Positions 10,851 to 29,173 of a DNA stretch of 64,000 bases are shown in pieces; position 1 is the stretch's first letter, and each line of letters opens with the position of its first letter. The translations under genes were made by a program, and so were the position numbers. The notes beneath the pieces are model-generated. The model did no database searches. It saw only the letters and a list, made by a program, of their open reading frames with translations, and was not told the DNA's origin. This DNA is from Candidatus Nitrosocosmicus oleophilus (GTDB lineage: Archaea; Thermoproteota; Nitrososphaeria; Nitrososphaerales; Nitrososphaeraceae): positions 2,754,587 to 2,818,586 of the forward strand of contig NZ_CP012850.1 of NCBI RefSeq assembly GCF_000802205.1, read 5' to 3'.

Positions 10851-11346
10851 GATACCTTATTTTGAGCCACACACTTTTTTAAAGATGTTGTGTGCAAATT
10901 GGGATGATAGATCAAGGTTAAACTGGACCGGATCCTAAAAGTTAGAATTATGTGATCCGAGCGAGTCTTGTCATATCAACTTTTATTACGAGTCGATGTA
11001 AATAAGTGCTTGAGAATCTTATCAGCTCAATTATAGAACACCCAAACATCAATCGAATCAAAATAGTGTCACTAATGCTACTGAATTTATTAAATTTTGA
11101 CCAAATGGTTAGCTTGCAAGATGCTAATTTTAATAATAAAGATTGCTTTAATCAGGAATGACCCATACAGTTTTTCAAATCAAGAAAAAGGTTAAAATTC
11201 TGCTTGGGAGACTGGTAGTTTTCATCCTATAAAACCTCAGCAAATATTTAAGGTAATCCGAAATTATATATTTTGATTCCGTTTTACATTAGAATGAATC
11301 CAAGATCCCTTGATGATTTTTATATTTTCTGTAGGCATAATTCATC
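10851..11346. other. Divergent intergenic region
   Basis: About 500 bases between divergently transcribed genes. No coding frame or repeat stands out. The run near 11250-11275 (AAATTATATATTTTG) could be a TATA box for the plus-strand gene. Confidence 0.35.
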
Positions 11347-11754
11347 ATGAGTAGTACAAACACATCCTCGATCAAAAAAGGCTCACGCGGTCATATTGAA
11401 ATTTTCCTTTATCGGGCTCCAAAGAAAAACCATGATGAAATGGTAGAAGTTAACAGACTGTCTCGAGATTTTTTCACCAAACATGGTGTATCCGGCTTTG
11501 AAGTATTTTCTCTTGACAGCAGGGAGAACGTGATGGAATTTGTAAATTTATCTAAGACAATTTCAGCTAGTGAAGAGGAAGAAGTATGGCTTGAAATACA
11601 ATCCTATAGAGATGCTGAGCATGTTAAAGAATTTACCGCTAATATGCAAGGAGACAAGAGTATTGAACCAATTAACAAAAGATTCATGGAACTAATTACT
11701 CCAGGCTCCATAGTCACTTTTGGTGGCTTTGGCAAGATTGAGGAAATATCCTAA
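11347..11754 (+). CDS. DUF1428-like protein
   Basis: 135-residue soluble protein beginning MSSTNTSSIKKGSRGHIEIF. The body (HIEIFLYRAPKKNHDEMVEV ... GFEVFSLDS ... ITPGSIVTFGGFGKIEEIS) resembles the DUF1428 type of dimeric alpha-beta-barrel domains. The biochemical role is unknown. It sits 15 bases before the esterase gene and probably shares its transcript. A truncated, frameshifted, nearly identical copy lies at 52849-53112. Confidence 0.7.
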   Translation: MSSTNTSSIKKGSRGHIEIFLYRAPKKNHDEMVEVNRLSRDFFTKHGVSGFEVFSLDSRENVMEFVNLSKTISASEEEEVWLEIQSYRDAEHVKEFTANMQGDKSIEPINKRFMELITPGSIVTFGGFGKIEEIS

Positions 11755-11769
11755 CTCGGAGATATTGAA

Positions 11770-12855
11770 ATGAAGAAATTAATACTAGGTGCGGCATTTT
11801 GTTTGGGTTTCGCACTATTTTTTGCTGGGTTTTTAAATACCAACCAACAAAGCATGACCTTTGGTCAAACCGAACCTAGCAGTAACAATTCAACGATAAC
11901 TATACCCACAACAATATCCTCAGAGGCTCAAAATGCTTTGAAGAACATTACATCGCAAATGCCAGAGTTTGTTACTCCTGGACCAAGTGATTTGAAGGGT
12001 TGGGAAGAATTGAATAAACAGGTTTCTGCAATGTCGATAGCTCAATCCCAATCTTTTGTAGATAGTTATGGAGCTAATATAACATCTACCAAATTAGGGA
12101 ATGCCAAGGTACTTGATATCAAACCAAAAGATTGGAAGGACAATGGAAAAATTCTGGTATATGTACATGGAGGTGGATATACCATTCTGGGCGCTAATTC
12201 CACACTGAACAATTCTGTCCCGGTATCCAATGCTACAGGACTTCGAGTTGTATCTGTAGACTACTCTCTGGCTCCGTCCGCAAAATGGAATAAGATAACA
12301 AGTGAAATTGTATCAGTCGTCAAAGCATTGAAGGATCAAGGCAACTCACTTGAGAATATTGCAATGTATGGTGATTCCGCAGGAGGAGGACTTATAGCAA
12401 CCTCGGTTTTGAAAATGCGTGATGAGGGTATTGGAATACCTGCAGCAATAGTACTTTGGTCTCCTTGGACAGATGTTTCTGGAGCTGGTGACTCTTATTC
12501 AACTTTAAAGACAGCTGATCCATTCATCCCCGAAACAATGTTGAAAAATATGGGTGGTGCCTATGCTAATGTTACGGATCAGAAGAATCCCTATGTTTCT
12601 CCAGTTTATGGCAATTTTAGTAAGGGGTTTTCACCAACTCTAATTCAAGTTGGAACCAAGGAAGTATTGCTTAGTGATTCAGTTAGACTATACCAAGCTT
12701 TGGACCAAGCAAATATTCCAGTGAAATTGGATGTTTATGAAGGCATGCCGCACGTATTTCAAACGACTCTGCATAAAACTCCTGAATCGTCATTAGCCAT
12801 TTTGAAGACTAGTGAGTTCTTAAAAGAGTATCTAAACTATCAGGAGAAACACTAA
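11770..12855 (+). CDS. Secreted alpha/beta-hydrolase, HSL/esterase family
   Basis: 361 residues with a clear signal peptide (MKKLILGAAFCLGFALFFAG). The oxyanion motif HGGGY is at 133-137; the nucleophile Ser203 is in GDSAGG; the likely catalytic Asp is near 303 (LLSDS), with His328 in GMPHVFQ. This is the hormone-sensitive-lipase group of carboxylesterases, here exported. The natural ester substrate is unknown. It follows the DUF1428-like gene by 15 bases, so an operon is likely. Length is normal for a mature 310-residue HSL esterase plus leader. Confidence 0.88.
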   Translation: MKKLILGAAFCLGFALFFAGFLNTNQQSMTFGQTEPSSNNSTITIPTTISSEAQNALKNITSQMPEFVTPGPSDLKGWEELNKQVSAMSIAQSQSFVDSYGANITSTKLGNAKVLDIKPKDWKDNGKILVYVHGGGYTILGANSTLNNSVPVSNATGLRVVSVDYSLAPSAKWNKITSEIVSVVKALKDQGNSLENIAMYGDSAGGGLIATSVLKMRDEGIGIPAAIVLWSPWTDVSGAGDSYSTLKTADPFIPETMLKNMGGAYANVTDQKNPYVSPVYGNFSKGFSPTLIQVGTKEVLLSDSVRLYQALDQANIPVKLDVYEGMPHVFQTTLHKTPESSLAILKTSEFLKEYLNYQEKH

Positions 12856-12893
12856 TCAAATCGATTGAAGAATCGCTAATTAATTCATATCGA

Positions 12894-13562
12894 TCAGGAT
12901 ATTTTTTTAAATTCTATAGAGATTGGCTTATGATCTTTGACAGTCCTTAGATCTGATTTGATTGTATGTTTATAATCAAAATCCATCCTTTGTTTTTTGT
13001 CATATTCTTTAATCCATTTTTCTAGAATCAAAGAGACTTCAGATCTAGGCATACCTTTAATATTTACTAAATATGGTATTAATATGTGCTGTAAACATAG
13101 TTTTCTATGATCTGTGATAGGAGTTTCTAGTAGTTTTTCAATCCAGGGTATTTCATGAGGTTCCTGATTGTTGTAGCGTGAATAATTTGATTCTAGTCTT
13201 TTGTCCTCTTTTATCTTTTCAGATTCAAGATTAGCATAGAAGGTACCTATCAGATGTTTGATAAGGGTCTGCCCATCCCAAACTTGAAGAATTTTAACCT
13301 TTGATTCTTCAACGCTTAACCCATTCCCAATACATTTTGAATTTGAGGAGCCTGGGAGACTTAATAGACATGACTCTAAGGATGGATGATTAGACTTGTC
13401 CGCATAACCATTAGATAAAGAATCAATTTCAAATCTCAGAAACCCATTGTCTGGTTTACCAAACTCCTGAAAGTCTTCCATATACTCAGATCTTTGTATA
13501 CTGTCAATAGGTTGGTAAATGTGGTAACCATTGCCTATCCATACCAAAGTATTGTTGAACAC
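12894..13562 (-). CDS. Primase-like protein (primase X-type C-terminus), probably N-terminally truncated
   Basis: 222 residues. The N-terminus LVWIGNGYHIYQPI resembles the G-x-H region of archaeo-eukaryotic primases, but the upstream catalytic Asp motif that should precede it is absent and no matching frame continues upstream. The C-terminal 85 residues (WIEKLLETPITDHRKLCLQH, then PYLVNIKGM, then LEKWIKEYDKKQRMDF) resemble the primase X-type accessory domain. A shorter relative of this domain is at 19.63 kb inside the integrated element. I read it as element-derived and incomplete. Primase family assignment is from remembered motifs, not a search. Confidence 0.55.
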   Translation of the reverse strand: MFNNTLVWIGNGYHIYQPIDSIQRSEYMEDFQEFGKPDNGFLRFEIDSLSNGYADKSNHPSLESCLLSLPGSSNSKCIGNGLSVEESKVKILQVWDGQTLIKHLIGTFYANLESEKIKEDKRLESNYSRYNNQEPHEIPWIEKLLETPITDHRKLCLQHILIPYLVNIKGMPRSEVSLILEKWIKEYDKKQRMDFDYKHTIKSDLRTVKDHKPISIEFKKIS

Positions 13563-14148
13563 ATTAATCCTTTACGCAGTTTAACTTTGTATATCAGAAT
13601 GTTAAATATTCAAACATTATAGAGCTGATTTGATAATTTCGGCCAATCTGGTCCAACAAGTATAACTAATGAGATTGACTAAATTTCTTGGTGTGATATG
13701 TTTAATACAAATTTTAAGGCTTGAATCTCGCCTTGCGTTTCTTTCTGTCGTATGACCCTCATAACCACAAAATTCTTCTATTTCAAGTAGCCTATCTCCG
13801 ATTTGTTTCTCTGTTTGAGTAATATTATCGCTGGATTGTACTATTTAAAATAACATAAGAATATGGATCTCGACTCATCAAATATCCATATAGTCAGATT
13901 ACAAAATACAATTAGTTCTTTTCATAAAGGAGCTAAAATGTATGTTCTTTATATCTCAGAACTTGGTTTATCTAACGCAAACTCTAAACCTGGATCTCCA
14001 CTTGTAACTCTGCTGTACAATATTCCTCAATATTACAAAATATTTTAGCTTCGTAGACTTTTGCTTGCAGTGCTTTCTTTATCTTCGTAATTACCGTAGG
14101 TGAACATACTTTTTAAGACAGAAACGAGTTGATGGCCCGTTTTATGTT
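13563..14148. other. Intergenic region with a possible small remnant ORF
   Basis: On the minus strand an open frame at 13617-13838 reads ...EEFCGYEGHTTERNARRDSS and ends LAEIIKSAL, about 73 residues, but has no ATG, GTG or TTG at its head. It may be the tail of a decayed gene. The rest of the stretch shows nothing I can support. Confidence 0.3.
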
Positions 14149-14439
14149 TTAATATTCGGCATATTCGTCTATAGCCTTTTGAGTCAAGTAAATGGAATCA
14201 GCATCATTTGGATCTATGAATATATACCCACTGCTAAGCAGGTTATCTCGGACATGTTGTCTCAGCTGCAAGTCTGACTCTTCCTTATTGTACCTGCCCC
14301 CTCGCCTCCTGCAAACATCATTATAGATATCAACAAACTTTACTGATACTTTCAATTCATTGTTGGTACTTTCAATCAAAACCTTGACAGATGCTAAGGT
14401 CAGACCTTGTATCTCCTCAGAAATATCTTGTTGTTCCAA
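14149..14439 (-). CDS. Hypothetical 96-aa protein, possible winged-helix fold
   Basis: Complete small frame. The N-terminal half is amphipathic, the middle is basic (CRRRGGRYNKEE), and the end reads SSGYIFIDPNDADSIYLTQK, which resembles the wing and last helix of small archaeal winged-helix proteins. DNA binding is inference. It is divergent from the small SKAEI gene to its right, with about 150 bases between. Confidence 0.55.
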   Translation of the reverse strand: MEQQDISEEIQGLTLASVKVLIESTNNELKVSVKFVDIYNDVCRRRGGRYNKEESDLQLRQHVRDNLLSSGYIFIDPNDADSIYLTQKAIDEYAEY

Positions 14440-14587
14440 TCATATTGATATGGATAATATACCTTATAAGATACAAGGTAATCGTTCAATCTCGAAGAAA
14501 TTTGAAAAAGGTTAACAAAGGGATACAATTACGTTTGATTAGATAGAAAAAGCTTAATTCATCAATTGTGTCATTATCTCTACTATC

Positions 14588-14821
14588 ATGTTATCAAAAG
14601 CAGAGATTCTATTTCTCCAAGGGCAAAAGATTGTATCAAAGCCCTATGAAAGAAAGTTGAAATGTTTAATCAAAAGGAAGATAGATGTGTTTAGAAAGGA
14701 AACTCCTTTATTATCGAAGTTAATTCTTGATAATTCTTGTAAATCTGAAGATATAATATATAGAGTTAAGGAAGCTGGCAAGCTGAGCAATTTTGATAAT
14801 CGTAATTCTAACAGAGCTTAA
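14588..14821 (+). CDS. Small basic protein of the SKAEI family (copy 1)
   Basis: 77 residues, MLSKAEILFLQGQKIVSKPY, rich in Lys/Arg. It is clearly related to the N-terminal 60 residues of the gene at 37734 (LSKAEIRYLEG, SKSYEYKLKS, DKELPLLTSL against SKPYERKLKC, ETPLLSKL). Both copies lie just to the left of a tRNA-Glu/att sequence. Because the other copy borders the right end of the integrated element, I infer that this family is an element-end gene and that this copy marks an older, largely lost element. Function unknown; the charge pattern would suit nucleic acid binding. Confidence 0.6.
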   Translation: MLSKAEILFLQGQKIVSKPYERKLKCLIKRKIDVFRKETPLLSKLILDNSCKSEDIIYRVKEAGKLSNFDNRNSNRA

Positions 14822-15190
14822 TCAGCAAACTACTGACAATCAAGCTACTAAATATGGTAATATCAATTCTGAAAACCTTCAATCTGGTATTAAGAAGATT
14901 GCGGCCCAAGAGGACCTCGAGAGTTAAAAAGCCCGTTATCAAAGTCAAAACATACAAGATGCTAACGAATTTAGTAATACTAGGTATAATACCCCACGGT
15001 CTACTAAAATAATAGCAAGAATCAACCCAAGAAGCAACATGGTTTAAGAGACTTCCCGGTGGGAATAAATGCCTAAAGCAAGTTACAAGCGGCACTATTT
15101 ACCAGTTAGTACCTGATATTGGGGAATTGGAGGGACCAGAACCAAAGTATTATATTAATAACCCCTCAAGTTTAATAGAAACCGCAGTAA
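14822..15190 (+). pseudogene. Coding remnants between the SKAEI gene and tRNA-Glu
   Basis: All three plus-strand frames show protein-like pieces with no start codon. One ends ...IKKIAAQEDLES at about 14926. A second reads NEFSNTRYNTPRSTKIIARI. A third begins near 15028 (TQEATWFKRLPGGNKCLK) and runs into the tRNA gene, ending inside its intron at 15217. The pattern is that of one or two genes broken by frameshifts and stops, consistent with an eroded element end. Confidence 0.35.
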
Positions 15191-15293
15191 GCTCCGGTGG
15201 TGTAGAGGTTATTAATTAAATTAACCACACAGTCCGGCTAAGCATTTCGCCCTCTCAAGGCGACGATCCCGGGTTCAAATCCCGGCCGGAGCA
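15191..15293 (+). tRNA. tRNA-Glu (anticodon CTC) with a 27-nt intron in the D loop
   Basis: The acceptor strand GCTCCGG at 15191-15197 pairs with CCGGAGC at 15286-15292, with discriminator A at 15293. The anticodon stem TCGCC/GGCGA encloses loop CTCTCAA (anticodon CTC at 15254-15256), and the T arm is CCGGG-TTCAAAT-CCCGG. The D arm is interrupted at 15206-15232. The precursor forms a bulge-helix-bulge: helix GTGT (15200-15203) with ACAC (15227-15230), 3-nt bulges AGA and AGT, and an inner stem GGTTA/TAACC. Cutting after AG in both bulges joins exons to GTGTAG-TCCGG and yields a normal 76-nt tRNA with the D stem restored. No CCA is encoded. The 3' half is the integration site of the adjacent element. 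Confidence 0.9.
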
Positions 15294-15307
15294 TCCTCTG
15301 TTTGGAA
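15249..15307 (+). repeat. att site copy 1 (left end of the 22.7-kb element)
   Basis: The 59 bases from the tRNA-Glu anticodon stem to TTTGGAA past the gene recur without mismatch at 37918-37976 and, with one mismatch, at 48435-48494. The direct repeat starts in the anticodon arm, a usual target of archaeal tyrosine integrases. The integrase gene begins within its right edge. Confidence 0.88.
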
Positions 15308-16294
15308 TTTATGAATAAAATGGTAAGAAATGATAATAATTTATCAAAATATACATTAAATGATAAATATTCTGAACATAATCAAAATGAGTCATCTGGG
15401 TGTAAGAGGGATGAAAAAGACACCTTACCAAATTCAGTAAGATTTTCAAACGATGACAAATTTTGGAATGATTTTAAGATTTATTTAATCAATGAAAAGC
15501 ATAGTCAGTCTAGTATACGAGATAAGATTAGTTACGCTAGACGATTTTACCATGTATTAGAGAAGAATGATGCATCCTCATTATCTCTTTTAACCACAGA
15601 TGTAAAATCTCACGCGATGAAGGCTTTGGCTGCTTTATCAAAATTCATAGGAATGTATGATTCTTGGCTTACTCTAATCAAGAAGTACAATCTCAAGTGG
15701 TCAAATGGAAGTGGCTCTCTTGCTACCTTCAAGACAATATTTGAAGATAATGGTAAAGACCTCAAATCGATGATTGATTGGATAAAGAAGGTATCGGCAA
15801 TTTTACCGGATGAATACAAGAATATATTATTATTCAATACATTAACCGGCCTTCGGCCGGATGAAGCTCAGAAATCAATATGGTTGATAAAGACAAAAGA
15901 AAAGGAGTATATTGACAAAGAAAGAGGAATTTTAAAACACTATCAATTTCCTTCTATCTTTCTTAGACAAACTAAGAATGCTTATGTTAGTGTATTCAAT
16001 GATCAAATTCTCGAAATTGCAAAAAGAACACCAAAAAGAGAATCCTACTATAATTCGTTACGGAAGAAAATAGCAATCAAAAATGGGTATGACATGAATA
16101 TGTATTATTGTCGCAAGGTATTTGCCACTTATTTTCGTAATAAAGGAATAGAACCTGAGATAATAGATTTGTTACAGGGAAGGATTAGTAGTTCTGTATT
16201 TGTTAATCATTACTATAGACCAGACATAAACGAGATAATTACGAAAAGGATAAGACCAGTGTTGGATGAGTTAAGAAATGATCTAATTCAATAA
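15302..16294 (+). CDS. Tyrosine recombinase (integrase)
   Basis: 330 residues. Residues 50-135 form the SAM-like core-binding domain (YARRFYHVL ... LSKFIGMYDSWL). The catalytic domain shows Arg185 in LTGLRPDE, Lys225 in LRQTKNAY, box II as YYCRKVFATYFR (Arg271, Arg279), and a C-terminal NHYYRPD with the nucleophile at Tyr304 or Tyr305. It catalyses integration and excision at the tRNA-Glu att site. TTG at 15302 is the outermost start and lies in the att repeat; ATGs at 15311 and 15320 are alternatives. Because the start overlaps the att core, the upstream sequence changes on excision, which could link expression to integration. Two relics of the same family lie at 47.6-48.6 kb. Confidence 0.9.
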   Translation: MEFMNKMVRNDNNLSKYTLNDKYSEHNQNESSGCKRDEKDTLPNSVRFSNDDKFWNDFKIYLINEKHSQSSIRDKISYARRFYHVLEKNDASSLSLLTTDVKSHAMKALAALSKFIGMYDSWLTLIKKYNLKWSNGSGSLATFKTIFEDNGKDLKSMIDWIKKVSAILPDEYKNILLFNTLTGLRPDEAQKSIWLIKTKEKEYIDKERGILKHYQFPSIFLRQTKNAYVSVFNDQILEIAKRTPKRESYYNSLRKKIAIKNGYDMNMYYCRKVFATYFRNKGIEPEIIDLLQGRISSSVFVNHYYRPDINEIITKRIRPVLDELRNDLIQ

Positions 16295-16481
16295 ATTCTA
16301 TTAATTATGATCATCCTAAATATTAAATCTACTCTAGATCATCTAATGGACCACTTGTTCAGACTAAAAATAACAGAAACCTTTGATACTGACATTCAAG
16401 ATGATCTGGGGCGCGCATTACATATACACGAATCTGATTGTGAAAGGGTTAGGGCCTCTAGTCACAATCAGTTCCAACACT

Positions 16482-16667
16482 ATGGAGGTTTTTACGTTGA
16501 ATAATAATGACAATTCGGATTATTTAATAATTGAGTTTATTATTGCATTGAAAATATTATTTGAGGCCATAAATGCAAATTCGAATCTAAACATTCTTAC
16601 AAAATTCAAAGATAGAAATAGGACTAATATCGTATCAATAAAAATTAGTCAGGAGGTTGGAGTATAA
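16482..16667 (+). CDS. Small hypothetical protein between integrase and ATPase
   Basis: An ATG at 16482 opens about 61 residues (MEVFTLNNNDNSDYLIIEFI) whose stop overlaps the ATG of the ATPase, a typical coupled arrangement. The frame is open farther upstream to 16383, but the extra part has odd composition. The middle is hydrophobic/amphipathic (IALKILFEAINANSNL). No family recognised; being translationally coupled to the ATPase suggests a replication accessory (inference). Confidence 0.5.
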   Translation: MEVFTLNNNDNSDYLIIEFIIALKILFEAINANSNLNILTKFKDRNRTNIVSIKISQEVGV

Positions 16668-18643
16668 TGTCTGAGATTCTTAAGGACCTAGTCAAAGAAG
16701 ACATCGACGATGATAAGAATTTAGAAGAATATGAGAATCCTAATGTAGTTTTCCGCGCCCCGCTCATTGATTCTAGTCTAGAGAAAACCTTGACCACTAT
16801 GTTTATCACAACAGAATCCGAATTGTGTATCGTAGATAACAAAGGTAATAAGTTCAGAAGCAAAATAGTTTGGTACAAAAACCAATCTGACGAAATCAAA
16901 GTGGATTGGTCAAAAACAGGAGAGGACATAAGAGTTACAATTCGTAATAGTGGTGCAAGTGGAATAAACACTGAAAAGCTGTTGGCAGTTTTAAAAAAGA
17001 TAGAAGAACCTATTGAATTATTTATGTCTGCAATATCAAATAAAATAGGATTAGATTCGGTTGTAGATTACATATGCACACCAAAAATTTCAGAAATGGC
17101 AATAACAAGATTTGGTGAATCCGATGATCAACTCAATAATTATGGTAAGACAGATCCAAAAAGAGAATTTTCTACCTACAAATACACAGTAAATAATCAA
17201 ATTTATGAAGCCGTGTTAATCGAAGGTCTTCCATACTTCATAACAATTAATGGCAAAGGTCAACTTGAAATTGTAGACAAGATAGTTGAAGAAACCCGTA
17301 TATTGAAACCCCCATTCAAAGAAGATTACATTTATCAACCTATTGCCTTTGAAAGTATAGAAGAATTGGAGAGTTACATAGAAACAGCTAGACACCTAAC
17401 TTTTGATGATTTGTTTAGGAAAATTAGAAAATATGTTTCTAGATTCATAGTTCACCACGAACACGTTTTAGATTATATTTCTGCTTTGATAATTTTCACA
17501 TATTTCCAAGATAAGTTTCCAACTGTACCTTATACCATGTTTGTTTCTGATAACGGAAGCGGAAAAAGCACAATAGGAGACATGTTTGAAGTTATAGCTT
17601 ATAGATGCGTAAATATGACAGATCCAACTACGGCAAATGTCTATAGAATATTAGGTAACATCGAGACTGGTCAATGCACTCTGGTGTTTGATGAAGTTGA
17701 TAAGATAGACCAAAGCGATATGATGAGCGTAATAAAGTCAGGATATGAGAAAAATAAGATAATAACTAGAACTAATACCAACTCAGGAAAACAGGAACAT
17801 TTTCATGCTTATGGAGTTAAGGTAATGTTAGGAGAAAGGACTCCGGATCCTTCAAGGGCAAAGGGTGTTTTGGATAGGACATTCATAATTTCCAATTTTA
17901 AAGGTAAGCCGGAATTAGACATAAAGGAAATAAAAAATCCTGAGAATAAAGTCCATATCCGAACTGCTAAAGAATTAGACACCATTAGAAAAACTCTGAT
18001 GGCATACAGGTTGATTCATTTTAATGATGAAATAATAAATATAGAAACAGGCCTTGAAGGGAGAGATAAGGAACTGTCTAAACCTATTCTTCAACGCTTT
18101 TATGGTACCAAGTGTTTGCAAGATATTGAAAATGCTCTCGAAAAGTTGCTAAACGAGAAACATGATAGAAAAGCTCATTCTCTCGAAAGAGATGCATTGG
18201 AAGTAATAGTTAAACTATTTGAAGAGTATCAAGATGGAGTAATCCCATTCTCTGAAATCTGGTATTCTATGGAAGTGAAGACTAATGGACATATCAATGA
18301 ATATAAAAGACATCAATTAGAAACTGAAGTACATGGTACCCTCTATAAAACTTCGTTCTCAAAAATGTTAAGGGACAAATTCGGTGCAAAAGATCCATCT
18401 ACCAGGGAAGCAAATACACGTTCTCTTGCATTTGACATAGACAAGACTATGAAATATTTAGAATCATATACAAAAGAAAATGGGCCAACACAGATAGAAT
18501 GTTCTTTAGTAAAGAGTGACAGCAGTGACAGCAGTGACAGCAGTTCGGAATGCTCCGTGGAGAAGTTTTGGGATAGTGGATCATCAACCAAAGATTACAG
18601 GCATGAGGCAGAGAAAATTATGGCTGATATGGGTCTGATCTAG
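16667..18643 (+). CDS. Replication-type ATPase/helicase of the element
   Basis: 658 residues. Walker A is DNGSGKST (295-302) and Walker B is LVFDEVDKI (about 339-347), followed by an arginine-finger-like VLDRTFII region, an arrangement seen in AAA+/SF3-like helicases and DUF3631-type proteins of archaeal plasmids. The N-terminal 280 residues have no motif I know. The C-terminal region contains a winged-helix-like section and a Ser/Asp-rich low-complexity tract. A good Shine-Dalgarno (AGGAGGT) precedes the ATG by 9 bases. The probable role is unwinding or loading at the element's origin. The primase module that often accompanies such proteins is represented here only by the truncated gene at 19.63 kb. 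Confidence 0.7.
   Translation: MSEILKDLVKEDIDDDKNLEEYENPNVVFRAPLIDSSLEKTLTTMFITTESELCIVDNKGNKFRSKIVWYKNQSDEIKVDWSKTGEDIRVTIRNSGASGINTEKLLAVLKKIEEPIELFMSAISNKIGLDSVVDYICTPKISEMAITRFGESDDQLNNYGKTDPKREFSTYKYTVNNQIYEAVLIEGLPYFITINGKGQLEIVDKIVEETRILKPPFKEDYIYQPIAFESIEELESYIETARHLTFDDLFRKIRKYVSRFIVHHEHVLDYISALIIFTYFQDKFPTVPYTMFVSDNGSGKSTIGDMFEVIAYRCVNMTDPTTANVYRILGNIETGQCTLVFDEVDKIDQSDMMSVIKSGYEKNKIITRTNTNSGKQEHFHAYGVKVMLGERTPDPSRAKGVLDRTFIISNFKGKPELDIKEIKNPENKVHIRTAKELDTIRKTLMAYRLIHFNDEIINIETGLEGRDKELSKPILQRFYGTKCLQDIENALEKLLNEKHDRKAHSLERDALEVIVKLFEEYQDGVIPFSEIWYSMEVKTNGHINEYKRHQLETEVHGTLYKTSFSKMLRDKFGAKDPSTREANTRSLAFDIDKTMKYLESYTKENGPTQIECSLVKSDSSDSSDSSSECSVEKFWDSGSSTKDYRHEAEKIMADMGLI
18516..18544 (+). 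repeat. 9-bp tandem repeat inside the ATPase gene
   Basis: The unit GTGACAGCA is repeated three times and encodes a Ser-Asp-Ser tract. The period is a multiple of three, so copy-number change keeps the frame. Confidence 0.7.
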
Positions 18644-19053
18644 TTATTAACCATATTTTTTGACTTTCACATTTATTGGATCTGGTATTACCAAATTGAT
18701 AATTTTGAATTATGATCTGGCATGGTGGAACAATCTGAGATATAGTATATTGTATCTCGGGTATGATGATAAATTGACCTGGCAATTTGAATAAGAGCGG
18801 GTAGTAAGTAACCAAACTATAAAACCAACAACAATATTTATTATCTTAATTAATGGTGATTTTATCAATGATTACCTTTTCCTAGGCACTGTCATTATTG
18901 TCACTAGTGTCATTTTCTGATACAAGATCTATTATCACGATTTTCACCTCTATAGGGACTGGGAAATTAACTAAGAAAAGAAAATGAGCCTCTATCTACC
19001 GGTAACAAATGATCAATTTTTTTTAACAAATAGAACTCATATAAGTAGATCAA
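18644..19053. other. Non-coding stretch after the ATPase
   Basis: About 410 bases with no convincing gene. It includes a T-rich run near 19016-19030 before the next gene. It is a candidate location for the element's replication origin, but I see no iteron series that would prove it. Confidence 0.3.
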
Positions 19054-19464
19054 ATGCAACCATTTTTGTACATAACTGATAACGTTTTAAAGGGGAAAAT
19101 AGAGTGCATTTTTATGATAAATAAGCAATTCAATTTGTTAATCATTGAAGGAGCAGATGCAATAGACCCTAATTCCAATGTTTTTACACTATATGATGCT
19201 CTTGATTCAAAAACATTTCAAAATGATACATATTCATTTGATCTTTTAGTTGAGGAAATCAGTAGAAAAACATTTACTGACATATCAGTAAAGACAGAAA
19301 AAATTCGTGGAACAGCATTGGCGAGTCTACTTAATTTCTTAGTAACGCTAGATTGTAAATTAACAAATAAACCGAATTATGAATACAAAGATTTCGAAGA
19401 GTTGCTTGATACTCCCACAACAAAATTGTTATATCCAACAACATTAAATTTGAAAAAGGATTAG
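19054..19464 (+). CDS. Hypothetical 136-aa element protein
   Basis: Complete frame from ATG (MQPFLYITDNVLKGKIECIF) to TAG. Acidic, mixed alpha/beta in appearance, without signal peptide or membrane span. No family recognised. It lies between the ATPase and the truncated primase-X-like gene and may be part of the replication block. Confidence 0.6.
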   Translation: MQPFLYITDNVLKGKIECIFMINKQFNLLIIEGADAIDPNSNVFTLYDALDSKTFQNDTYSFDLLVEEISRKTFTDISVKTEKIRGTALASLLNFLVTLDCKLTNKPNYEYKDFEELLDTPTTKLLYPTTLNLKKD

Positions 19465-19627
19465 TTTTTTCATCTTATCATAAATTTAATCCATATCTTA
19501 TTCCAAGAGCTTTCACTGCTTCTACCTTTTTTTGGTCTGGTCCAATTTGAAGTTGATCTAAAGACAAAAATAAACCATGAATAATTTTGAAAAAAATCAA
19601 ATGAGTTACTCAGATTAGCTAACTTGA

Positions 19628-19921
19628 GGAGATTTTGCAAAAAAACCAATAGAAGTTTACAGAAAAGAATGTTTATGGAGAATTATTGGACCTTATTTGT
19701 TAAATGTAAAGAATCTATCTGAATTAGAAGCTTCCAAAGTGATGGAAGAATGGTTAGATAAATGTGATATAGTCCGAAAATTGGATTTTGAACCGCGGAT
19801 AAAAATCCATAGCATAATAAAAGGAAATAAAGGGTATAACCCTATTTCATATCAAAAACTTATCGTAGATAATAATGCACTATATTTTCTATTGGAATCA
19901 AGGATAGATATTGTCAGATAG
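19628..19921 (+). pseudogene. Primase X-like C-terminal fragment
   Basis: After an in-frame TGA at 19625-19627 the frame reads KKPIEVYRKECLWRIIGPYL, then LNVKNLSELEASKVMEEWLD and KLDFEPRIKIHSIIKG. This matches in order the C-terminal domain of the 222-aa gene at 12.9-13.6 kb (PITDHRKLCLQHILIPYL, VNIKGM, LEKWIKEYDKKQRMDFD). There is no ATG at the head; a TTG at 19697 could yield only 74 residues. I read it as the surviving tail of a primase-type replication protein. Confidence 0.55.
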
Positions 19922-19927
19922 AAAAGT

Positions 19928-20266
19928 CTATTTTGACATAACCACCATTGTATTTATGGACCCAGTGCCAGTATAACTAGTTGTAGTATAAGAAACCACA
20001 TCATCAATCTTGTAACCATGTTTCTTAATAACATCAACACCTTTCCAGATCAAATCAATGTAGTCTGAGGAAAGTGCAACCGTATTAGGACTTTCGTATA
20101 ATACGTCTACCCTATTTGAACACGTAGGACACAATCGTAATTCCTTATCTTCTGATATTATTTTGGTCAAATTTACGGTTGGAGTTGATTGCGCATATGA
20201 TGACTGTTCCGACAATAACAGAATGACACTTACAGTAATCGCAAAAATGAAAATTATCTTAATCAT
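19928..20266 (-). CDS. Small secreted protein with a CPTC motif
   Basis: 112 residues with a clear signal peptide (MIKIIFIFAITVSVILLLSE ... SYAQ). The mature part is about 85 residues and contains LRLCPTCSNRV and a Ser/Thr-rich end. The Cys pair may form a disulfide or bind metal outside the cell. It converges on the primase fragment with a 6-base gap. Confidence 0.65.
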   Translation of the reverse strand: MIKIIFIFAITVSVILLLSEQSSYAQSTPTVNLTKIISEDKELRLCPTCSNRVDVLYESPNTVALSSDYIDLIWKGVDVIKKHGYKIDDVVSYTTTSYTGTGSINTMVVMSK

Positions 20267-20513
20267 TTCGTAAGAATATGAAAGAGGCTTTATTTAAAGC
20301 TAATATTTAACTTTAAGTGAATTGTTAGAACTCTAGTGATTGCGGTTCTTCATTTAGCAGGTATTATCTCTTTGTAGAAAATCAATAGGGATTCAGTTAA
20401 TTCCTTACTTTGCTTTTATTTACAATTCTTTATTGTACTAGGAAAGTAATAGTCGAAACTTTCTGTTCTATCCTGCAAATCTTTAATTTATTCAAAACGA
20501 TACTTAACTGGAT

Positions 20514-20996
20514 ATGGATTTTTCGTTTTTCAACCATCCAGTAATTTCGTTTAGTAGTAATAACGACGAATGGTGGCAAATTCTGATTCTTTTTATACCA
20601 TTAATTATATCAGGTATTACCTTAGCATACACCGTTAATACATTTTATAAAACTATCCCGAGAATGAAGAAATCAGAACAGATTAAGATGGTTCATGACA
20701 TTCAAACAATGTATTTGAGTGCTTTTGACAAATATGTGAAATCAATCAAAGATAATGATGAACATAGGTATATAGTTATTTGTTATACGAGTCTACTGAA
20801 TGCCTTGGAATGGTATATGTTTCTGAAAGATACTGGCCAGCTAGAGGATGTATTCGATAATCACTTTGAAACATATTTCATTGCAACTTGCAAGGTATTT
20901 GAGGACTATAAAGACGATATAAAGGATAGAAACTACATAAGGGTTAGAAAAAAGTGGGAAAAAATGAAGTCTCAAGATCCACATATCATGGATTAA
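20514..20996 (+). CDS. Hypothetical single-span membrane protein
   Basis: 160 residues. A membrane segment at about 22-44 (WQILILFIPLIISGITLAYT) is followed by a cytoplasmic helical domain of about 110 residues rich in Lys, Asp and aromatic residues (SEQIKMVHDIQTMYLSAFDK). No named family recognised. It lies 283 bases upstream of the DUF4062 gene on the same strand; membrane-anchored partners are common in defence modules, but a link here is only contextual. Confidence 0.6.
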   Translation: MDFSFFNHPVISFSSNNDEWWQILILFIPLIISGITLAYTVNTFYKTIPRMKKSEQIKMVHDIQTMYLSAFDKYVKSIKDNDEHRYIVICYTSLLNALEWYMFLKDTGQLEDVFDNHFETYFIATCKVFEDYKDDIKDRNYIRVRKKWEKMKSQDPHIMD

Positions 20997-21279
20997 TTTC
21001 TATGACTTTCTTCCCTTCATGAATGTTTCATTCTAAGTAAAGCACTATGATATCTATTTGAAACGTTGATGAGGTGTGAAACTAATCTTATGAAATGAAA
21101 AATGTAAAGGTTTTTGCAATAGTTAATAATTTCGACCAGATCTATACTCAGCTAAGATTTCGGGTTATGATTACAGTTTACCCTTTTAGAATCTTCACAA
21201 CGTTCACTACCTCCACCTTTTATCCACATGAGATTTTTTGAACAAATATTTACCACGTCATCGTTAGAAATGACAATAA

Positions 21280-22683
21280 TTGATCACTGATAAAAGATAC
21301 CAAGTTTTCGTAAGCTCTACGTATGAAGACTTAATAGAAGAGCGTCAGTCTGTTTTACTGGCTCTACAAAAATTGGGTTGCATCCCATCAGGTATGGAAC
21401 TTTTCACAGCGGCCAACGAAGATCAATGGAGTATTATACAAAAGGTTATAGATGAATGTGATTATTACATTACTATCATTGGAGGACGATATGGCAGTAT
21501 GTCCCAATCTGGAATTAGTTTTACAGAAATGGAATATAAATATGCGGAAACGATTAAAAAACCAGTCATTGCTTTTCTATTTAAGAATATCAATTCTCTG
21601 CCTGCGAACAAAATTGAGTTAGAACCGAAGTCTAGAAAGAAGCTTGATAATTTTAGACTATATGTTGAAAAAAGAATGTGCCAATATTGGATATCACCTG
21701 CGGATCTTAGCTATCAGGTAAGTGTTGCTATGATTAAATTGATTGAAAATAATCCTGCAATTGGCTGGAAACGTGCTAATGAATCAATGTCAGAAGATCT
21801 CATACTTGAAAACTCAAAACTAAAATCACAAATCGAACATCTAAGTCTGGAATTGTCTTTATTAAAGAACTCTGTGACAAACGGAATTAATAGTATTCCT
21901 TTTGAAGAAAAGAAATTACATTCTAAATATATATCTGATATTTTTAAAAAAATTCAATATTTACACTTGAGTCATTATTTTAATCCCATTCAAATCGACT
22001 ATTGCGTTCCAAATAATCCAAACGAATTTGGATCCTACATAAATGATCCTGAGCCTGATGAACGTTTGGATAGATCTACAAGACTACTCAGGTCTATAAA
22101 CCATAGTACTTGGGCATTGGATCATATTAGGACGGGACAATATGGTAGTATCTATGACAATTGGTCATACTTAGTAGAGAAGAGAGATGAATATAATTCA
22201 ACGTTAGAATATAAAATGAATTTATTCAGAAATTACGTGGAAAAACGACTACAAGAGAACGAAGAAACAATCAAATTACTTGTCGATTCCATAAAGAGTT
22301 TTGGAAACGGAACCCATATTACTTATAATTTTTGTAATAAAGTTTATAATCGAATTAACTCATTACCTGATCCTGAAATCTTGTATGGATGGGCACAAAA
22401 CGAAACATATTTCGACAGTTATTCACTAAATCCATTAGAGTACTACTTTAAGGAGCAACAATCACTAATTGCATTAGATAAAGAAAATACATTTGATATG
22501 AAAAATGTTTCTCAAGAAATAAGGCAATTGACACTTGCTGCTAGAAATATTTTCAAGCATCAAATGATATTATTGTATGATATATCAAAAGTAATTCCCA
22601 TGTTTGCGAATAAAATAGGAGAAATAGCTATAGATATAGAAGCTGGAGAGATAATTAAGGGGACCTGCAAGTTGAACTACTAA
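21280..22683 (+). CDS. DUF4062-domain protein
   Basis: 467 residues starting with TTG. Residues 5-100 form a DUF4062 domain: YQVFVSSTYEDLIEERQSVL, GMELFTAANEDQW, CDYYITIIGGRYGS, SFTEMEYKYA. DUF4062 has a TIR/nucleoside-hydrolase-like fold and is often the effector or sensor part of prokaryotic defence and NLR-like proteins. A predicted coiled coil (SKLKSQIEHLSLELSLLKNS) follows at about 180-205, then a helical C-terminal region of about 260 residues with no motif I know. There is no P-loop. The role as an immune effector carried by the element is inference from the family. Confidence 0.75.
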   Translation: MITDKRYQVFVSSTYEDLIEERQSVLLALQKLGCIPSGMELFTAANEDQWSIIQKVIDECDYYITIIGGRYGSMSQSGISFTEMEYKYAETIKKPVIAFLFKNINSLPANKIELEPKSRKKLDNFRLYVEKRMCQYWISPADLSYQVSVAMIKLIENNPAIGWKRANESMSEDLILENSKLKSQIEHLSLELSLLKNSVTNGINSIPFEEKKLHSKYISDIFKKIQYLHLSHYFNPIQIDYCVPNNPNEFGSYINDPEPDERLDRSTRLLRSINHSTWALDHIRTGQYGSIYDNWSYLVEKRDEYNSTLEYKMNLFRNYVEKRLQENEETIKLLVDSIKSFGNGTHITYNFCNKVYNRINSLPDPEILYGWAQNETYFDSYSLNPLEYYFKEQQSLIALDKENTFDMKNVSQEIRQLTLAARNIFKHQMILLYDISKVIPMFANKIGEIAIDIEAGEIIKGTCKLNY

Positions 22684-22919
22684 TAGCTATCTAATCGGGT
22701 CTAAATTACCTTAAATCATACAGATTGAGTGGATTCTTCTAATAACGAAAATGTGATTTCGCGCACATAGCCGATCAAGAATATATACTTGCGCAACGAC
22801 TGTAAATCGCCGTTAATAATTTTGGTCACGTTAAGTAACAGAATTATCATAATCCTATTTTTTTAACACTGCCTCTAAGGGCTTCACTGCTTTCATTTCA
22901 TTAGACATTTAGTCATATC

Positions 22920-23564
22920 TTATTTTTTAACTACCCTCTTTACTACATAGATTTCATGAACGGCAGCCTTAAATTTACCTAATAGAGCTTTATCTTTCTC
23001 CAATGCATCCAAATATTTGTGCATCGATTTGATTATGTCATTAGAAAGAGTTTCTATATGAATTACGAATTTATGATCATATTCTAAATTTATTCTCGTA
23101 TTTCCAATTGGTATTATGCCACTCTCAGTTATGGATCTTGGTAATATCTGTAAATGGTTTGCTTTATTATCGTCATTTAATTCCCAAGAAATTCTTCTAT
23201 TATCAAATTCAAATACTGTTTCTGGCATTGATACATGAATGGTTTTATGTCTAAACATTTGCCATATTATTTCAATAGAATCATATTCATAGCCTAAAAA
23301 TTGCAAAGACATTTTCTTTGCGTTATTACTCGTGTCGACGTTCTTGTTATTCATATCCTTTTTACCCCCTTGTCCAGCGTACAATGCACCCATAAAATCA
23401 ATCATTGCGAAACAGTATAACAAGGCTGATAATGGGGCATTTCCTTCACTATCTTTCATCATACACCTATTAACGTCAAAACGTAGATTCTTGGTTTTAT
23501 CATTAACAATCGCCTGGGCTAATCCTATAGCTTGATCATCAGTTATCTTTTCTAAATTGAACAA
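22920..23564 (-). CDS. Hypothetical 214-aa protein with a HEPN-like motif
   Basis: Soluble helical protein. The segment SALLYCFAMIDFMGALYAG followed about 50 residues later by IWQMFRHKTIHVSMP resembles HEPN-type proteins, whose RX4-6H motif (here R-HKTI-H) forms an RNase site. It ends in a basic tail (VVKRVVKK). It is convergent with the DUF4062 gene, 236 bases away. If the HEPN reading holds, it would be an RNase toxin or regulator; the evidence is one motif plus context. Confidence 0.5.
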   Translation of the reverse strand: MFNLEKITDDQAIGLAQAIVNDKTKNLRFDVNRCMMKDSEGNAPLSALLYCFAMIDFMGALYAGQGGKKDMNNKNVDTSNNAKKMSLQFLGYEYDSIEIIWQMFRHKTIHVSMPETVFEFDNRRISWELNDDNKANHLQILPRSITESGIIPIGNTRINLEYDHKFVIHIETLSNDIIKSMHKYLDALEKDKALLGKFKAAVHEIYVVKRVVKK

Positions 23565-23684
23565 GATGCATTTATATTTAAATCATCTTAAATTTGTATT
23601 TTGCATTAGAAATGTACTAAATCATCAGATTATCTCGGCTCCATACCAAAATTGGTAAAGAATTCTTAGCGAAACTACGTTGGT

Positions 23685-23706
23685 GTTAAGAAAAACTACC
23701 CCCAAG
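23685..23706 (-). repeat. Dispersed motif copy 1
   Basis: Near-consensus match to TTAAGAAAAACTACCCCCA on the plus strand, so the G-run-then-T-run orientation is on the minus strand. It begins a 170-bp repeat shared with 30745-30914. No intact gene precedes it in its reading direction. Confidence 0.7.
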
Positions 23707-23856
23707 CGGCCCGAAACAATTTATTATCTCCAAGATTTCCAAGGCGTCACGATGTAGTAAATAGTCTGTATCACAAACTTACCTTAGTTAAATTCTCATT
23801 ATCAAGAATGAGAATGATAAATCTGATTACATAAATATAGTAGACAATTAGCAACT
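23685..23856 (+). repeat. 170-bp duplicated upstream region (copy A)
   Basis: Homologous over its length to 30745-30914: shared words include AAGCGGCCCGAAACAATTT, AGATTTCCAAG and TAAATTCTCATTATCA. Each copy ends just before a plus-strand gene for a secreted protein (23956 and 30918), so it is a duplicated promoter region or leader, although the two coding regions do not look alike. Confidence 0.75.
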
Positions 23857-23955
23857 GAACCTGACAACACAAATGTAATTATTGCAAGTTTACCATTTTT
23901 GGAATGAATTCTTTTTTAGAAAAATATATAAAGATACTCCCATATTTGGGAAGTA

Positions 23956-24588
23956 ATGTATTTTAAATACTATTTTCTGTTTGCGATCATATTAGGTATG
24001 ATGGGATACTATGCTGTATCAAATATTATTCCATCAACTGCATTTTCCATTGAAATCCCGATAGTAAAAAGCACCAATGAAGATAGCGATACCGCATCTT
24101 CCTCTGGCATTGCTACAAATTCTACAAATACTTCTGGTACTAGTACTGAGGAATTTGCTTTACAAGCGACATTGGAACCACATGAGAATAAATTCTTAGC
24201 GGAAGATGGATATTATCAAACTGATGGATTTGGGCTAAATCTAAGTCCCAATTCTGATTTATGTCCTGCAAATAATTGCGAATTTGAGATTGAAGATGGA
24301 CAGTTACGATCCGACCTATCAGGAGGTTATGTGTTTGACGGCAGATTGAAGATAGGTATTGAATCAGATGAAGGTACACGCTCAAAAATATTTGATATTT
24401 ACAGCAAATTGGATAGAGTAGAAACATTGGAAAATGATGATGGAACAACAGATTATTTGAAGGGCGAATTTAATTTAGGATCGGAATTCGAGGCAATTTA
24501 TAATCCCGATTACAGTTACACCATTAACAATGGAACGTTAACTTTTGAAGATGATGAAGGCACTCTCGTATTGCAAGGTGATAGGTAA
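23956..24588 (+). CDS. Secreted hypothetical protein, 210 aa
   Basis: Signal peptide MYFKYYFLFAIILGMMGYYA, then a Ser/Thr-rich spacer (SNTNTSGTSTEE-type composition) and an acidic domain with NNCEFEIEDGQL and repeated DDGT/DDEGT turns. Probably an extracellular beta-rich domain; no family recognised. It shares its upstream region with the gene at 30918. The next gene starts about 40 bases downstream on the same strand. Confidence 0.65.
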   Translation: MYFKYYFLFAIILGMMGYYAVSNIIPSTAFSIEIPIVKSTNEDSDTASSSGIATNSTNTSGTSTEEFALQATLEPHENKFLAEDGYYQTDGFGLNLSPNSDLCPANNCEFEIEDGQLRSDLSGGYVFDGRLKIGIESDEGTRSKIFDIYSKLDRVETLENDDGTTDYLKGEFNLGSEFEAIYNPDYSYTINNGTLTFEDDEGTLVLQGDR

Positions 24589-24629
24589 TTTACAACGTCT
24601 CAAATAGTAAACTATTTCTTATCTTCTTA

Positions 24630-25265
24630 GTGGCTACAGCTTTCATTATTATAGGACCAAGTTTACATAGTTTCGTTGATGCTCAGGTAGAAATTCCCGA
24701 AGCTCGGACAATTAATGAAGACAATACATCCGAAAGTCAAACTAATGATACAAATACTTCTTATCTTTCTCACACGGACAATGACTTAGGATTCAGCCTA
24801 GAATATCCTGATTCTTGGGAAATTGGTGTAGGAGGAAACGCGTACCAGATCGTATCATTTAGCTCTCCTGATGATACGGCATCTGCATATGTTATGTTTG
24901 TCCCACGAGAAGATGATCAATCTCTAAGAAGCTTTGGAGATGCATTTGTGAAGGAAAATGAAGATTTTAAATTCAACACATATTACAGAAACAGTACTAC
25001 ACTGTTAGCAGACCAACCAGCCTTCAGAGCATCGGGAACTTATTTCAATACGGTAACCCCAATCGAACGTTCTTTGGGGTATGAATCATCCAACACAAAA
25101 ACTCTTCAGACTGTCACACTTGACGAAAAGAATGATGGATTCATTGGAATTATCTATCATGCAGATGACCAAGTCACCTATGATAAGTATTTGCCTCTAC
25201 TTGAACACATGATTTCTTCATTAACTTTGTCTTCATCAGGTCCCGTTATAAGCGAGGACGAGTGA
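24630..25265 (+). CDS. Secreted PsbP-like protein
   Basis: 211 residues from a GTG at 24630. Residues 50-200 form a PsbP-like domain starting NDLGFSLEYPDSWEIGVGGN, as in three other proteins of this window. The frame is open about 13 codons farther upstream (SNSKLFLIFLV before the GTG), which would make a longer, better signal peptide, but no ATG, GTG or TTG is available there; the start is therefore uncertain, and a rare start codon or translational coupling to the upstream gene is possible. Confidence 0.65.
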   Translation: MATAFIIIGPSLHSFVDAQVEIPEARTINEDNTSESQTNDTNTSYLSHTDNDLGFSLEYPDSWEIGVGGNAYQIVSFSSPDDTASAYVMFVPREDDQSLRSFGDAFVKENEDFKFNTYYRNSTTLLADQPAFRASGTYFNTVTPIERSLGYESSNTKTLQTVTLDEKNDGFIGIIYHADDQVTYDKYLPLLEHMISSLTLSSSGPVISEDE

Positions 25266-25510
25266 TCTAATAATTTACTTTTTTATCACTCAGCGAAGAA
25301 ATAGTGCAATAGTACACAATTCTTTTTTCTGACTGATTTCAGATCAAAATAATTCGGTCGCTATTGAAAAAGAGCAAATAGATGATCTGTTGGATCAATT
25401 GCACTTTTCGTGCTAATGTCTCTTCTAAGTTTATCACAGTCTTTATCTTTGATTGGTAACAGCAATTGGACAAAATGAGGATTACTATTGGGCGAAGACA
25501 ATTGAATAGC

Positions 25511-25532
25511 ATTAAGAAAAAACTCCCCCACG
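25511..25532 (-). repeat. Dispersed motif copy 2
   Basis: ATTAAGAAAAAACTCCCCCA on the plus strand. In the G-to-T orientation it lies 112 bases behind the stop of the minus-strand gene at 25644-25859. Confidence 0.75.
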
Positions 25533-25643
25533 CCACATTAGTTTATAATTAGTGTCACAATGGCGTCTACAAAATTTACTGCTCCATTTAATTATTAGCC
25601 TAAATACCGTAGGCATTTTCTAGTTCCTCTTTCTATTTTAAAT

Positions 25644-25859
25644 CTATAACGTTTCTCTGTTATACTCATCTTTTTCCCATTTTAATTCTACAAATGCAAC
25701 TAGTTCTTTGGTATCATCATTTATTACAGGAAAACCAGTTAGTACCATAGTAAGATCTACTGAATCCCGCTTTACGATAATCCTGTGTTTAAACTTGTGA
25801 GAGCCTTCAGGCAAGGGGTTAAAGTCAACAGCTGAGTTAACCACAATTATACTTCTCAT
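25644..25859 (-). CDS. Hypothetical 71-aa protein, intact paralogue of the pseudogene at 49.6 kb
   Basis: I take the ATG at 25859 (MRSIIVVNSAVDFNPLPEGS), which aligns with the start of the relic at 49616 (MGIIIVVSSTVDFDPLPDNS); a longer frame reaches 25919. The core KHRIIVKRDS ... GFPVINDDTKELVAFVEL is probably a small beta protein. No signal peptide. Function unknown. Both paralogues are followed 110-115 bases downstream by a copy of the dispersed motif. Confidence 0.6.
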   Translation of the reverse strand: MRSIIVVNSAVDFNPLPEGSHKFKHRIIVKRDSVDLTMVLTGFPVINDDTKELVAFVELKWEKDEYNRETL

Positions 25860-25948
25860 CAAAATCCAATAAGGTGTTAGTAAAATCATACTGTTAAATT
25901 GTAAAGATAAAAAGGACAATAGCTATTAAATTATCAAATTAATGGTTA

Positions 25949-26566
25949 TTGTTATTGAAATTAAATAGGAAAAATCTAACTATTACATTATTCGTATTTT
26001 TGACTCTAAGTATAGGAGTCATGTCAACAAATTCTGTAGTAAAATCAGTACATGCTCAGTCTAATACTTTGGCACAAAAGGGGAATAGTCAAGCAGAGCA
26101 AGTTATAGATCAATTACAATCCTCTAATCAAGATGACCAAGTAGTCTCAGGTGATAGTAGTATTTTATCTGGAAATAATTTACAATGTCAAAATCAAGAC
26201 AATTCACAAGGTTTTGACGAAGGTTGTAATTTAGGACAAACAAATTTACCGCCAAATGGTCCTACTGCCAAACTGATTGTAGATGCCACAGTTAAAGATG
26301 GACAATGTACGATTGCAAAATCATGTAGTATCACAATAACTTATGGTTCAAAATTAATAACTCAATCCGTGACTCATTCAATGCTCTTTGACATAGACGT
26401 ACTGATTGACTCGAGATTTGCTATAACTGTTACAAGTTTTGGACCACTTACTGCTTCTGTAACCAATTCTGATTGCGAAATATTTTCCACAGAACCTTAC
26501 TTTCAGTGTAGAGGAATTAAAAACCCACAACCGACTCAACTTAACGCCATATTTTTTTCAAGATAG
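25949..26566 (+). CDS. Secreted protein with Gln/Asn-rich N-terminal region
   Basis: 205 residues. The signal peptide includes ITLFVFLTLSIGVMSTNSVV and a likely cut after VHAQ. The mature start NTLAQKGNSQAEQVIDQLQ and the later SGDSSILSGNNLQCQNQDN resemble the N-termini of the secreted proteins at 35.7, 36.8 and 34.5 kb, so they belong to one surface family. The C-terminal 90 residues contain two Cys pairs (DGQCTIAKSCSITITYG and DCEIFSTEPYFQCRG). Confidence 0.7.
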   Translation: MLLKLNRKNLTITLFVFLTLSIGVMSTNSVVKSVHAQSNTLAQKGNSQAEQVIDQLQSSNQDDQVVSGDSSILSGNNLQCQNQDNSQGFDEGCNLGQTNLPPNGPTAKLIVDATVKDGQCTIAKSCSITITYGSKLITQSVTHSMLFDIDVLIDSRFAITVTSFGPLTASVTNSDCEIFSTEPYFQCRGIKNPQPTQLNAIFFSR

Positions 26567-27438: not shown

Positions 27439-27541
27439 GCACTTACTCTTTACAACGAACGAACTTCATAGTCTTGGACAAAGACTCGAGAGATGTTCCA
27501 ACTGACAATGACCGTTTTTCAAGACCACAAGAACAAGTAGT

Positions 27542-29122: not shown

Positions 29123-29173
29123 TATTTACGCAAAAAGTTTGGAAAGAATTCTCACCTATTGAGGTCAAGATTT

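What the first reader, a model, noticed from the sequence alone, without database searches (positions are those of the whole stretch)
15191..15293. tRNA-Glu(CTC) with a non-canonical D-loop intron and a well-formed BHB motif
The intron (15206-15232) sits between D-loop positions 15 and 16 rather than beside the anticodon. The 5' strand of the D stem (GTGT) pairs with ACAC of the intron to form the 4-bp central helix, with bulges AGA and AGT and an inner GGTTA/TAACC stem. Splicing after AG in both bulges gives a standard 76-nt tRNA. So the precursor must refold its D arm after splicing. BHB splicing at non-canonical sites is established for Crenarchaeota and Thaumarchaeota; this site in a mobile-element attachment gene is the notable part.
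Basis: partly seen in the sequence, partly recalled or inferred. Interest (0 to 1): 0.72.

Follow-up and report, generated by a model that had tools for sequence, protein, structure and literature searches.

The report
Intron-bearing tRNA-Glu shuffled by mobile elements
A soil archaeon's only tRNA-Glu(CTC) gene really does carry a small removable insert in an unusual place, as its close relatives' genes do, and copies of the insert-bearing half of the gene also sit inside mobile elements that use the gene as their docking site.

Summary
Window 15191-15293 is the only full tRNA-Glu(CTC) gene in a closed 3.43-Mb genome (genus Nitrosocosmicus). Its 27-nt intron lies at D-loop position 15/16. Removing it gives a 76-nt tRNA that ARAGORN calls Glu(ctc). 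Intron-free orthologues in several other genera of the family equal the spliced sequence but for one or a few bases. All 16 distinct CTC introns recovered keep a GTGT/[AG]CA[CT] central helix and a 2-10 bp inner stem. The Glu(TTC) isoacceptor carries an intron at the same site across at least two families. The genome encodes catalytic and non-catalytic EndA subunits. The motif is the relaxed HBh' form, with no outer helix, not a full BHB. Splicing itself is untested.

Non-canonical introns in Thaumarchaeota, and integration into intron-bearing tRNA genes, are already published. What looks new is around it: a tandem element array (att repeats at 15249, 37918, 48435), an inverted 59-bp copy of the intron-bearing 5' half inside the second element (38237-38295), and intron-bearing 5'-half copies beside integrases in four other genomes. 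In three of four strains the inverted copy has the resident gene's own intron. This fits and extends the 2012 proposal that element attachment sites carry tRNA introns.

The parts
15142..15190 (+). conserved upstream block (promoter-like CCAAAGTATTATATTAATAACCCC...) of tRNA-Glu(CTC)
   Evidence: aligns with the gene as one 96.8% block to G197 (window 15142-15297); present upstream of the tRNA and of the direct 5'-half fragments in relatives
15191..15205 (+). tRNA-Glu(CTC) exon 1 (positions 1-15)
   Evidence: identical in intron-free orthologues such as L064
15206..15232 (+). 27-nt D-loop (15/16) intron; HBh' splice motif with GTGT 15200-15203 / ACAC 15227-15230 and GGTTA/TAACC inner stem
   Evidence: absent in other genera
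15233..15293 (+). tRNA-Glu(CTC) exon 2, with anticodon loop CTCTCAA
15249..15307 (+). attL core: GCCCTCTCAAGG... through the tRNA 3' end plus TCCTCTGTTTGGAA
   Evidence: 59-bp exact repeat with 37918-37976
15302..16294 (+). intact archaeal tyrosine integrase of element 1, same strand as the tRNA and adjacent to it
   Evidence: PF16795 E 3e-5, below the family cut-off; relatives at up to 73% identity over most of the protein, many beside tRNA-Glu
15308..37917 (.). element 1 (about 22.6 kb)
   Evidence: bounded by att repeats
37918..37976 (+). attR of element 1 / attL of element 2 (tRNA 3' half)
   Evidence: 100% over tRNA bases 59-103
38237..38295 (-). inverted copy of tRNA bases 10-68 (5' half, whole intron, through the anticodon loop), 58/59 identical, 275 bp inside element 2
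   Evidence: blastn E 6e-27 within the window; same geometry in G191, G128, G056
38010..38159 (-). small CxxC...CxxC zinc-ribbon-like reading frame, frameshifted, downstream of the inverted copy (approximate limits)
   Evidence: read by hand; homologous spacer in G056
37977..48434 (.). element 2 (about 10.5 kb)
   Evidence: bounded by att repeats; related left ends in G191 (84%) and G128 (74%)
47597..48415 (-). decayed integrase of element 2
   Evidence: 41% to the element 1 integrase with 3 stop codons; PF16795 E 2.6e-8 for 47567-48016
48435..48491 (+). attR of element 2, one mismatch over the tRNA part
11228..15141 (.). 3.9-kb insertion directly upstream of the tRNA block, absent in relative G197; contains a PriX-domain gene
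   Evidence: window/G197 alignment, Pfam

Best explanation
15191-15293 is a real single-copy tRNA-Glu(CTC) gene with a D-loop 15/16 intron. The (alpha-beta)2-type splicing endonuclease should remove it at a relaxed HBh' motif, after which the D arm refolds. The intron site is old in tRNA-Glu(TTC); the CTC gene has the intron only in Nitrosocosmicus and was probably given it there. The gene is also an integration hub. Its anticodon loop is the probable crossover. One kind of element carries the 3' half (elements 1 and 2 here). Another kind carries promoter + 5' half + intron, so its integration swaps the gene's intron and leaves the old intron-bearing 5' half as a fragment. Element 2 also holds an inverted intron-bearing 5' half, kept like the resident copy by recent copying or gene conversion. 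Shown: anatomy, conservation, isoacceptor intron, att repeats, fragments, synteny. Inferred: splicing, crossover point, direction of swaps, homogenisation.
For: Fold and tRNA call. Sixteen CTC and six TTC introns all with the 4-bp central helix; the named structure pairs in 97.7% of cells against 18-50% when slid. Intron-free CTC in other genera fixes the boundaries. TTC intron at the same site in L034 and L203-L210. Two EndA genes; the alpha-like protein keeps the Y/H/K-type context and the beta-like one lacks it (sequences, read by eye). Single gene copy. att repeats. Direct 5'-half + intron fragments next to integrases in G056, G137, G113, G149. The G113 fragment sits in the flank that holds the full gene in G146 (90% over 755 bp), and the G137 fragment in the flank of the G041/G098 genes. 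Inverted copies in four genomes with 270-295 bp geometry; their introns equal the resident intron in three (28/28, 28/28, 31/31), not in G128 (21/34).
Against: No RNA data. The column-shuffle control for covariation is not significant (60-102 of 500 shuffles reach the observed values), because most pairs vary little. For 3 of 16 introns the minimum-energy fold of the whole precursor does not show the motif. No 5'-half remnant was found at the left end of the window's own 3.9-kb upstream insertion (remnant test 68/500), so a swap at this gene itself is not shown. Most relatives are draft MAGs: G191 is probably chimeric, and G113 has no full CTC gene in its assembly.
Confidence: 0.8

Rival explanations
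1. The insert has inactivated the gene: a pseudo-tRNA kept only as an attachment site, with GAG codons read by tRNA-Glu(TTC).
For: A TTC isoacceptor exists and could read GAG by wobble; the locus is crowded with integrated elements.
Against: Exons are intact and conserved across the genus while the intron varies in length (21-55 nt) yet keeps its pairing; TTC carries an intron at the same site; the spliced product is a normal cloverleaf.
Confidence: 0.05
2. Ordinary non-canonical tRNA intron and ordinary 3'-end integration; the 5'-half fragments and inverted copies are random debris of nested insertions, with no role in moving introns.
For: Non-canonical introns and tandem integrations are common in this phylum (PMC8450103, PMC6563490); the fragments are few and decayed at their edges.
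Against: Four direct fragments all stop just past the anticodon loop and lie within about 120 bp of integrase sequence; four inverted copies share one geometry and end at the same base; inverted introns match the resident gene in three strains.
Confidence: 0.3
3. The inverted 5'-half copy acts through its transcript, for example as an antisense RNA to pre-tRNA-Glu or as part of a trans-spliced half tRNA.
For: Exon part is unchanged between strains apart from one base while flanks diverge; it matches the resident intron in three strains.
Against: The acceptor stem is degraded, no upstream tRNA-type promoter block is present, and there is no splice motif at a half-tRNA junction; gene conversion between close inverted repeats explains the match more simply.
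Confidence: 0.06

Closest known systems
Non-canonical archaeal tRNA introns with relaxed BHB (HBh') motifs, cut by (alpha-beta)2 EndA (reviewed in PMC4090602; tRNAscan-SE 2.0 survey PMC8450103)
   Same: small intron outside 37/38, HBh' motif, phylum with (alpha-beta)2 EndA
   Different: position 15/16 is not among the example positions listed in PMC4090602; here it is shared by both Glu isoacceptors of one genome
Mobile-element-borne tRNA-Thr intron of Caldiarchaeum subterraneum (Sugahara et al. 2012, PMC3293823)
   Same: 5' tRNA fragment left beside a recombinase gene and a full intron-bearing tRNA gene elsewhere; attP proposed as the intron vector
   Different: here a different tRNA (Glu) and position, several genomes of one genus, plus inverted 5'-half copies inside 3'-type elements
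Thaumarchaeal iMGEs integrated in intron-containing tRNA genes (Krupovic et al. 2019, PMC6563490)
   Same: integrase element using the tRNA 3' half as att, tandem integration
   Different: that survey found a single 5'-distal integration and does not describe inverted intron-bearing tRNA halves in the passages read
pNOB8-type versus SSV-type archaeal integrase integration (review PMC8371274)
   Same: intact integrase gene adjacent to and on the same strand as the tRNA (pNOB8-like arrangement); anticodon loop as overlap
   Different: crossover not mapped here; element 2 has its decayed integrase at the far end on the other strand

Membership tests
archaeal tRNA intron (EndA substrate) | removal restores a canonical tRNA | tested here: met
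   ARAGORN tRNA-Glu(ctc), 76 nt; L064 intron-free orthologue
archaeal tRNA intron (EndA substrate) | 4-bp central helix, 3-nt bulge, inner helix (HBh') | tested here: met
archaeal tRNA intron (EndA substrate) | complete hBHBh' with outer helix | tested here: not met
   no outer helix beside the 3' bulge in the fold
archaeal tRNA intron (EndA substrate) | (alpha-beta)2 EndA in the same genome | tested here: met
   two PF01974 genes over cut-off; catalytic and non-catalytic by inspection
archaeal tRNA intron (EndA substrate) | cleavage and ligation observed | not testable with these tools
   no RNA data
tRNA-gene attachment site of an integrated element | direct repeat of the tRNA 3' part at the far end, integrase inside | tested here: met
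   59-bp exact repeat at 37918 and integrase at 15302
tRNA-gene attachment site of an integrated element | empty site in a relative | tested here: inconclusive
   G197 keeps both flanks and the tRNA but has 0.66 kb of other sequence after the tRNA where the window has about 36 kb
Sugahara-type intron vector (attP with intron-bearing 5' half) | 5' fragment at the old locus next to an integrase and a full tRNA elsewhere | tested here: met
   in relatives: G137 with different-flank full gene; G113 fragment at old locus but full gene not found
Sugahara-type intron vector (attP with intron-bearing 5' half) | same event at the window's own gene | tested here: inconclusive
   3.9-kb upstream insertion, but no left-end fragment found

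The most novel reading that the evidence does not exclude
Elements of the element 2 type are bivalent. They carry a 3'-half attachment site and, about 280 bp away and inverted, a 5'-half site with intron, overlap CTCTCAA and an element-specific right arm. The integrase can flip the segment between them or integrate through either, so tRNA-Glu introns are repeatedly captured, homogenised and moved between strains as part of the attachment module.
Probability: 0.2. Interest if true: 0.68.

Novelty: new member of a known kind. Interest (0 to 1): 0.45.

Why it matters
How tRNA introns spread is an open question. The 2012 proposal that integrating elements carry them in their attachment sites rested on one tRNA in one population. 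Nitrosocosmicus tRNA-Glu(CTC) shows fast-changing introns at a fixed splice site, 5'-half fragments next to integrases at old chromosomal loci, and inverted copies that track the resident intron. Cultured members of the genus exist (own knowledge), so the idea could be tested directly.

Tried and rejected
ARAGORN and Rfam at curated thresholds miss the gene, as expected for a D-loop intron. An ancestral promoter remnant at the left end of the 3.9-kb upstream insertion was not significant (68/500). I asked whether other loci with the 195-aa element 2 gene also have inverted tRNA halves upstream; none was apparent by eye. PHROGs gave no identity for most element genes. A first covariation alignment had unequal lengths and was redone. 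G191 (a MAG in another genus bin, with four tRNA-Glu(CTC) contigs) was used with caution as probably chimeric.

Full report
What is there. The window is position 2,754,587-2,818,586 of a single-contig 3.43-Mb genome. Same-genus relatives are named Candidatus Nitrosocosmicus in public records. 15191-15293 reads as tRNA-Glu(CTC) interrupted between positions 15 and 16 by 27 nt. The precursor folds with GTGT/ACAC and GGTTA/TAACC around a 3-nt AGA bulge; the 3' side AGT is followed by unpaired D-loop bases, so the motif is HBh' rather than a full BHB. Removing 15206-15232 gives a 76-nt tRNA called Glu(ctc). Genome-wide DNA searches found no other full CTC copy. The only comparable gene is the TTC isoacceptor at 2,670,879, which has its own 20-nt intron at the same site.

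Is it real. Comparative evidence is stronger than folding. CTC genes of several other genera of the family have no intron and run GTGTAG-TCCGG with otherwise almost the same sequence, fixing both boundaries. Within the genus every CTC gene recovered has an intron at this point, 21-55 nt long and very variable, always with four pairs to GTGT (ACAC, GCAC, ACAT) and an inner stem that changes on both sides (GGTTA/TAACC, GGCT/AGCC, GACT/AGTC, GGCTCTTTTT/AAAAAGAGTC). On an 11-sequence alignment 97.7% of cells pair, against 18-50% for slid registers; the column-shuffle control is not significant because few columns vary. Introns at the same site of tRNA-Glu(TTC) occur in two families of the order, so the site is old in TTC and probably newer in CTC. 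The genome has two EndA homologues. One has the catalytic-subunit context (FGCDFAVYIHGPGIDHAPFLV...TTVKKQ); the other lacks the histidine and lysine (by inspection), the (alpha-beta)2 arrangement expected for Thaumarchaeota (PMC4090602). Splicing itself was not observable.

The attachment site. The tRNA 3' part from GCCCTCTCAAGG through the end plus 14 bp recurs exactly at 37918-37976 and with one mismatch at 48435-48491. An intact integrase follows the tRNA on the same strand and a decayed one lies next to 48435. Relative G197 has the flanks and tRNA without this array. The shared core starts in the anticodon loop, so the D-loop intron lies outside it. Integration into intron-bearing tRNA genes is known here (10 of 39 cases, PMC6563490).

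Bases 10-68 of the gene, intron included, recur inverted at 38295-38237 with one mismatch. Related element left ends in G191, G128 and G056 have the same inverted copy 270-295 bp from the tRNA or att end, always stopping at CTCTCAA. In three of the four the intron equals the resident one exactly although introns differ between strains; in G128 it does not. Because the tRNA and its inverted copy can lie only about 300 bp apart, gene conversion or recent copying is the simplest reading (inference). Separately, G056, G137, G113 and G149 have direct copies of promoter + 5' half + intron that stop just past the anticodon loop and are followed by integrase sequence. The G113 fragment lies in the flank where G146 has the whole gene, and the G137 fragment in the flank of the G041 and G098 genes. 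In G137 and G149 the fragment's intron differs from that of the full gene. This is the pattern Sugahara et al. proposed for tRNA-Thr in Caldiarchaeum: an attP carrying an intron-bearing 5' half replaces the host's 5' half and leaves the old one as a fragment (PMC3293823; restated in PMC8371274). In the window itself a 3.9-kb insertion with a PriX-domain gene sits directly upstream of the tRNA block relative to G197, but no left-end fragment was found, so a swap at this very gene is possible and not shown.

Verdict. Observation confirmed; the intron is an ordinary kind of non-canonical archaeal tRNA intron at a less usual site, in a known kind of attachment gene. The surrounding copies make this locus a good test of element-borne tRNA introns.

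Noticed in passing
38300-38380 and upstream of homologues L154-L167: A conserved palindrome-like motif (TACGCATnnTTACACTGCGTAA) sits just upstream of the start of the 195-aa element gene (38380-38967) in many of its homologues; a likely operator or iteron.
   Followed up: partly
L144, L145, L146 (G122, G146, G113): tRNA-Glu(TTC) genes whose anticodon arm and 3' half are CTC-like (CCCTTTCAAGGCGACG) while the 5' half and intron are TTC-like: mosaic isoacceptor genes.
   Followed up: partly
L059 (G104), tRNA-Glu(CTC) intron: The 3' end of this CTC intron (AAAAGCTGCACAA) equals the 3' end of the window genome's TTC intron, suggesting the CTC intron came from the TTC gene.
   Followed up: no
L108 ~15498-15528, L117, L120; downstream of tRNA in L107, L116, L119: Inverted T-arm-like pieces (GGGATTTGAACG / TTTGAACCCGGGA) flank the att cores of another element type at tRNA-Glu.
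   Followed up: no
L046 (G000:C1:2672900-2673150): A partial tRNA-Glu(TTC) 3' end about 2.1 kb downstream of the TTC gene, probably the attR of a decayed element.
   Followed up: no
window 36814-37551, 39898-40653, 45666-46361: Element cargo includes a collagen-repeat protein, an RTX calcium-binding repeat protein and an Hsp20-family protein.
   Followed up: no
L027 (G000:C1:2091711-2091813): tRNA gene (apparently Asn GTT) with an extra insert near the start of the anticodon stem, another probable non-canonical intron in the same genome.
   Followed up: no
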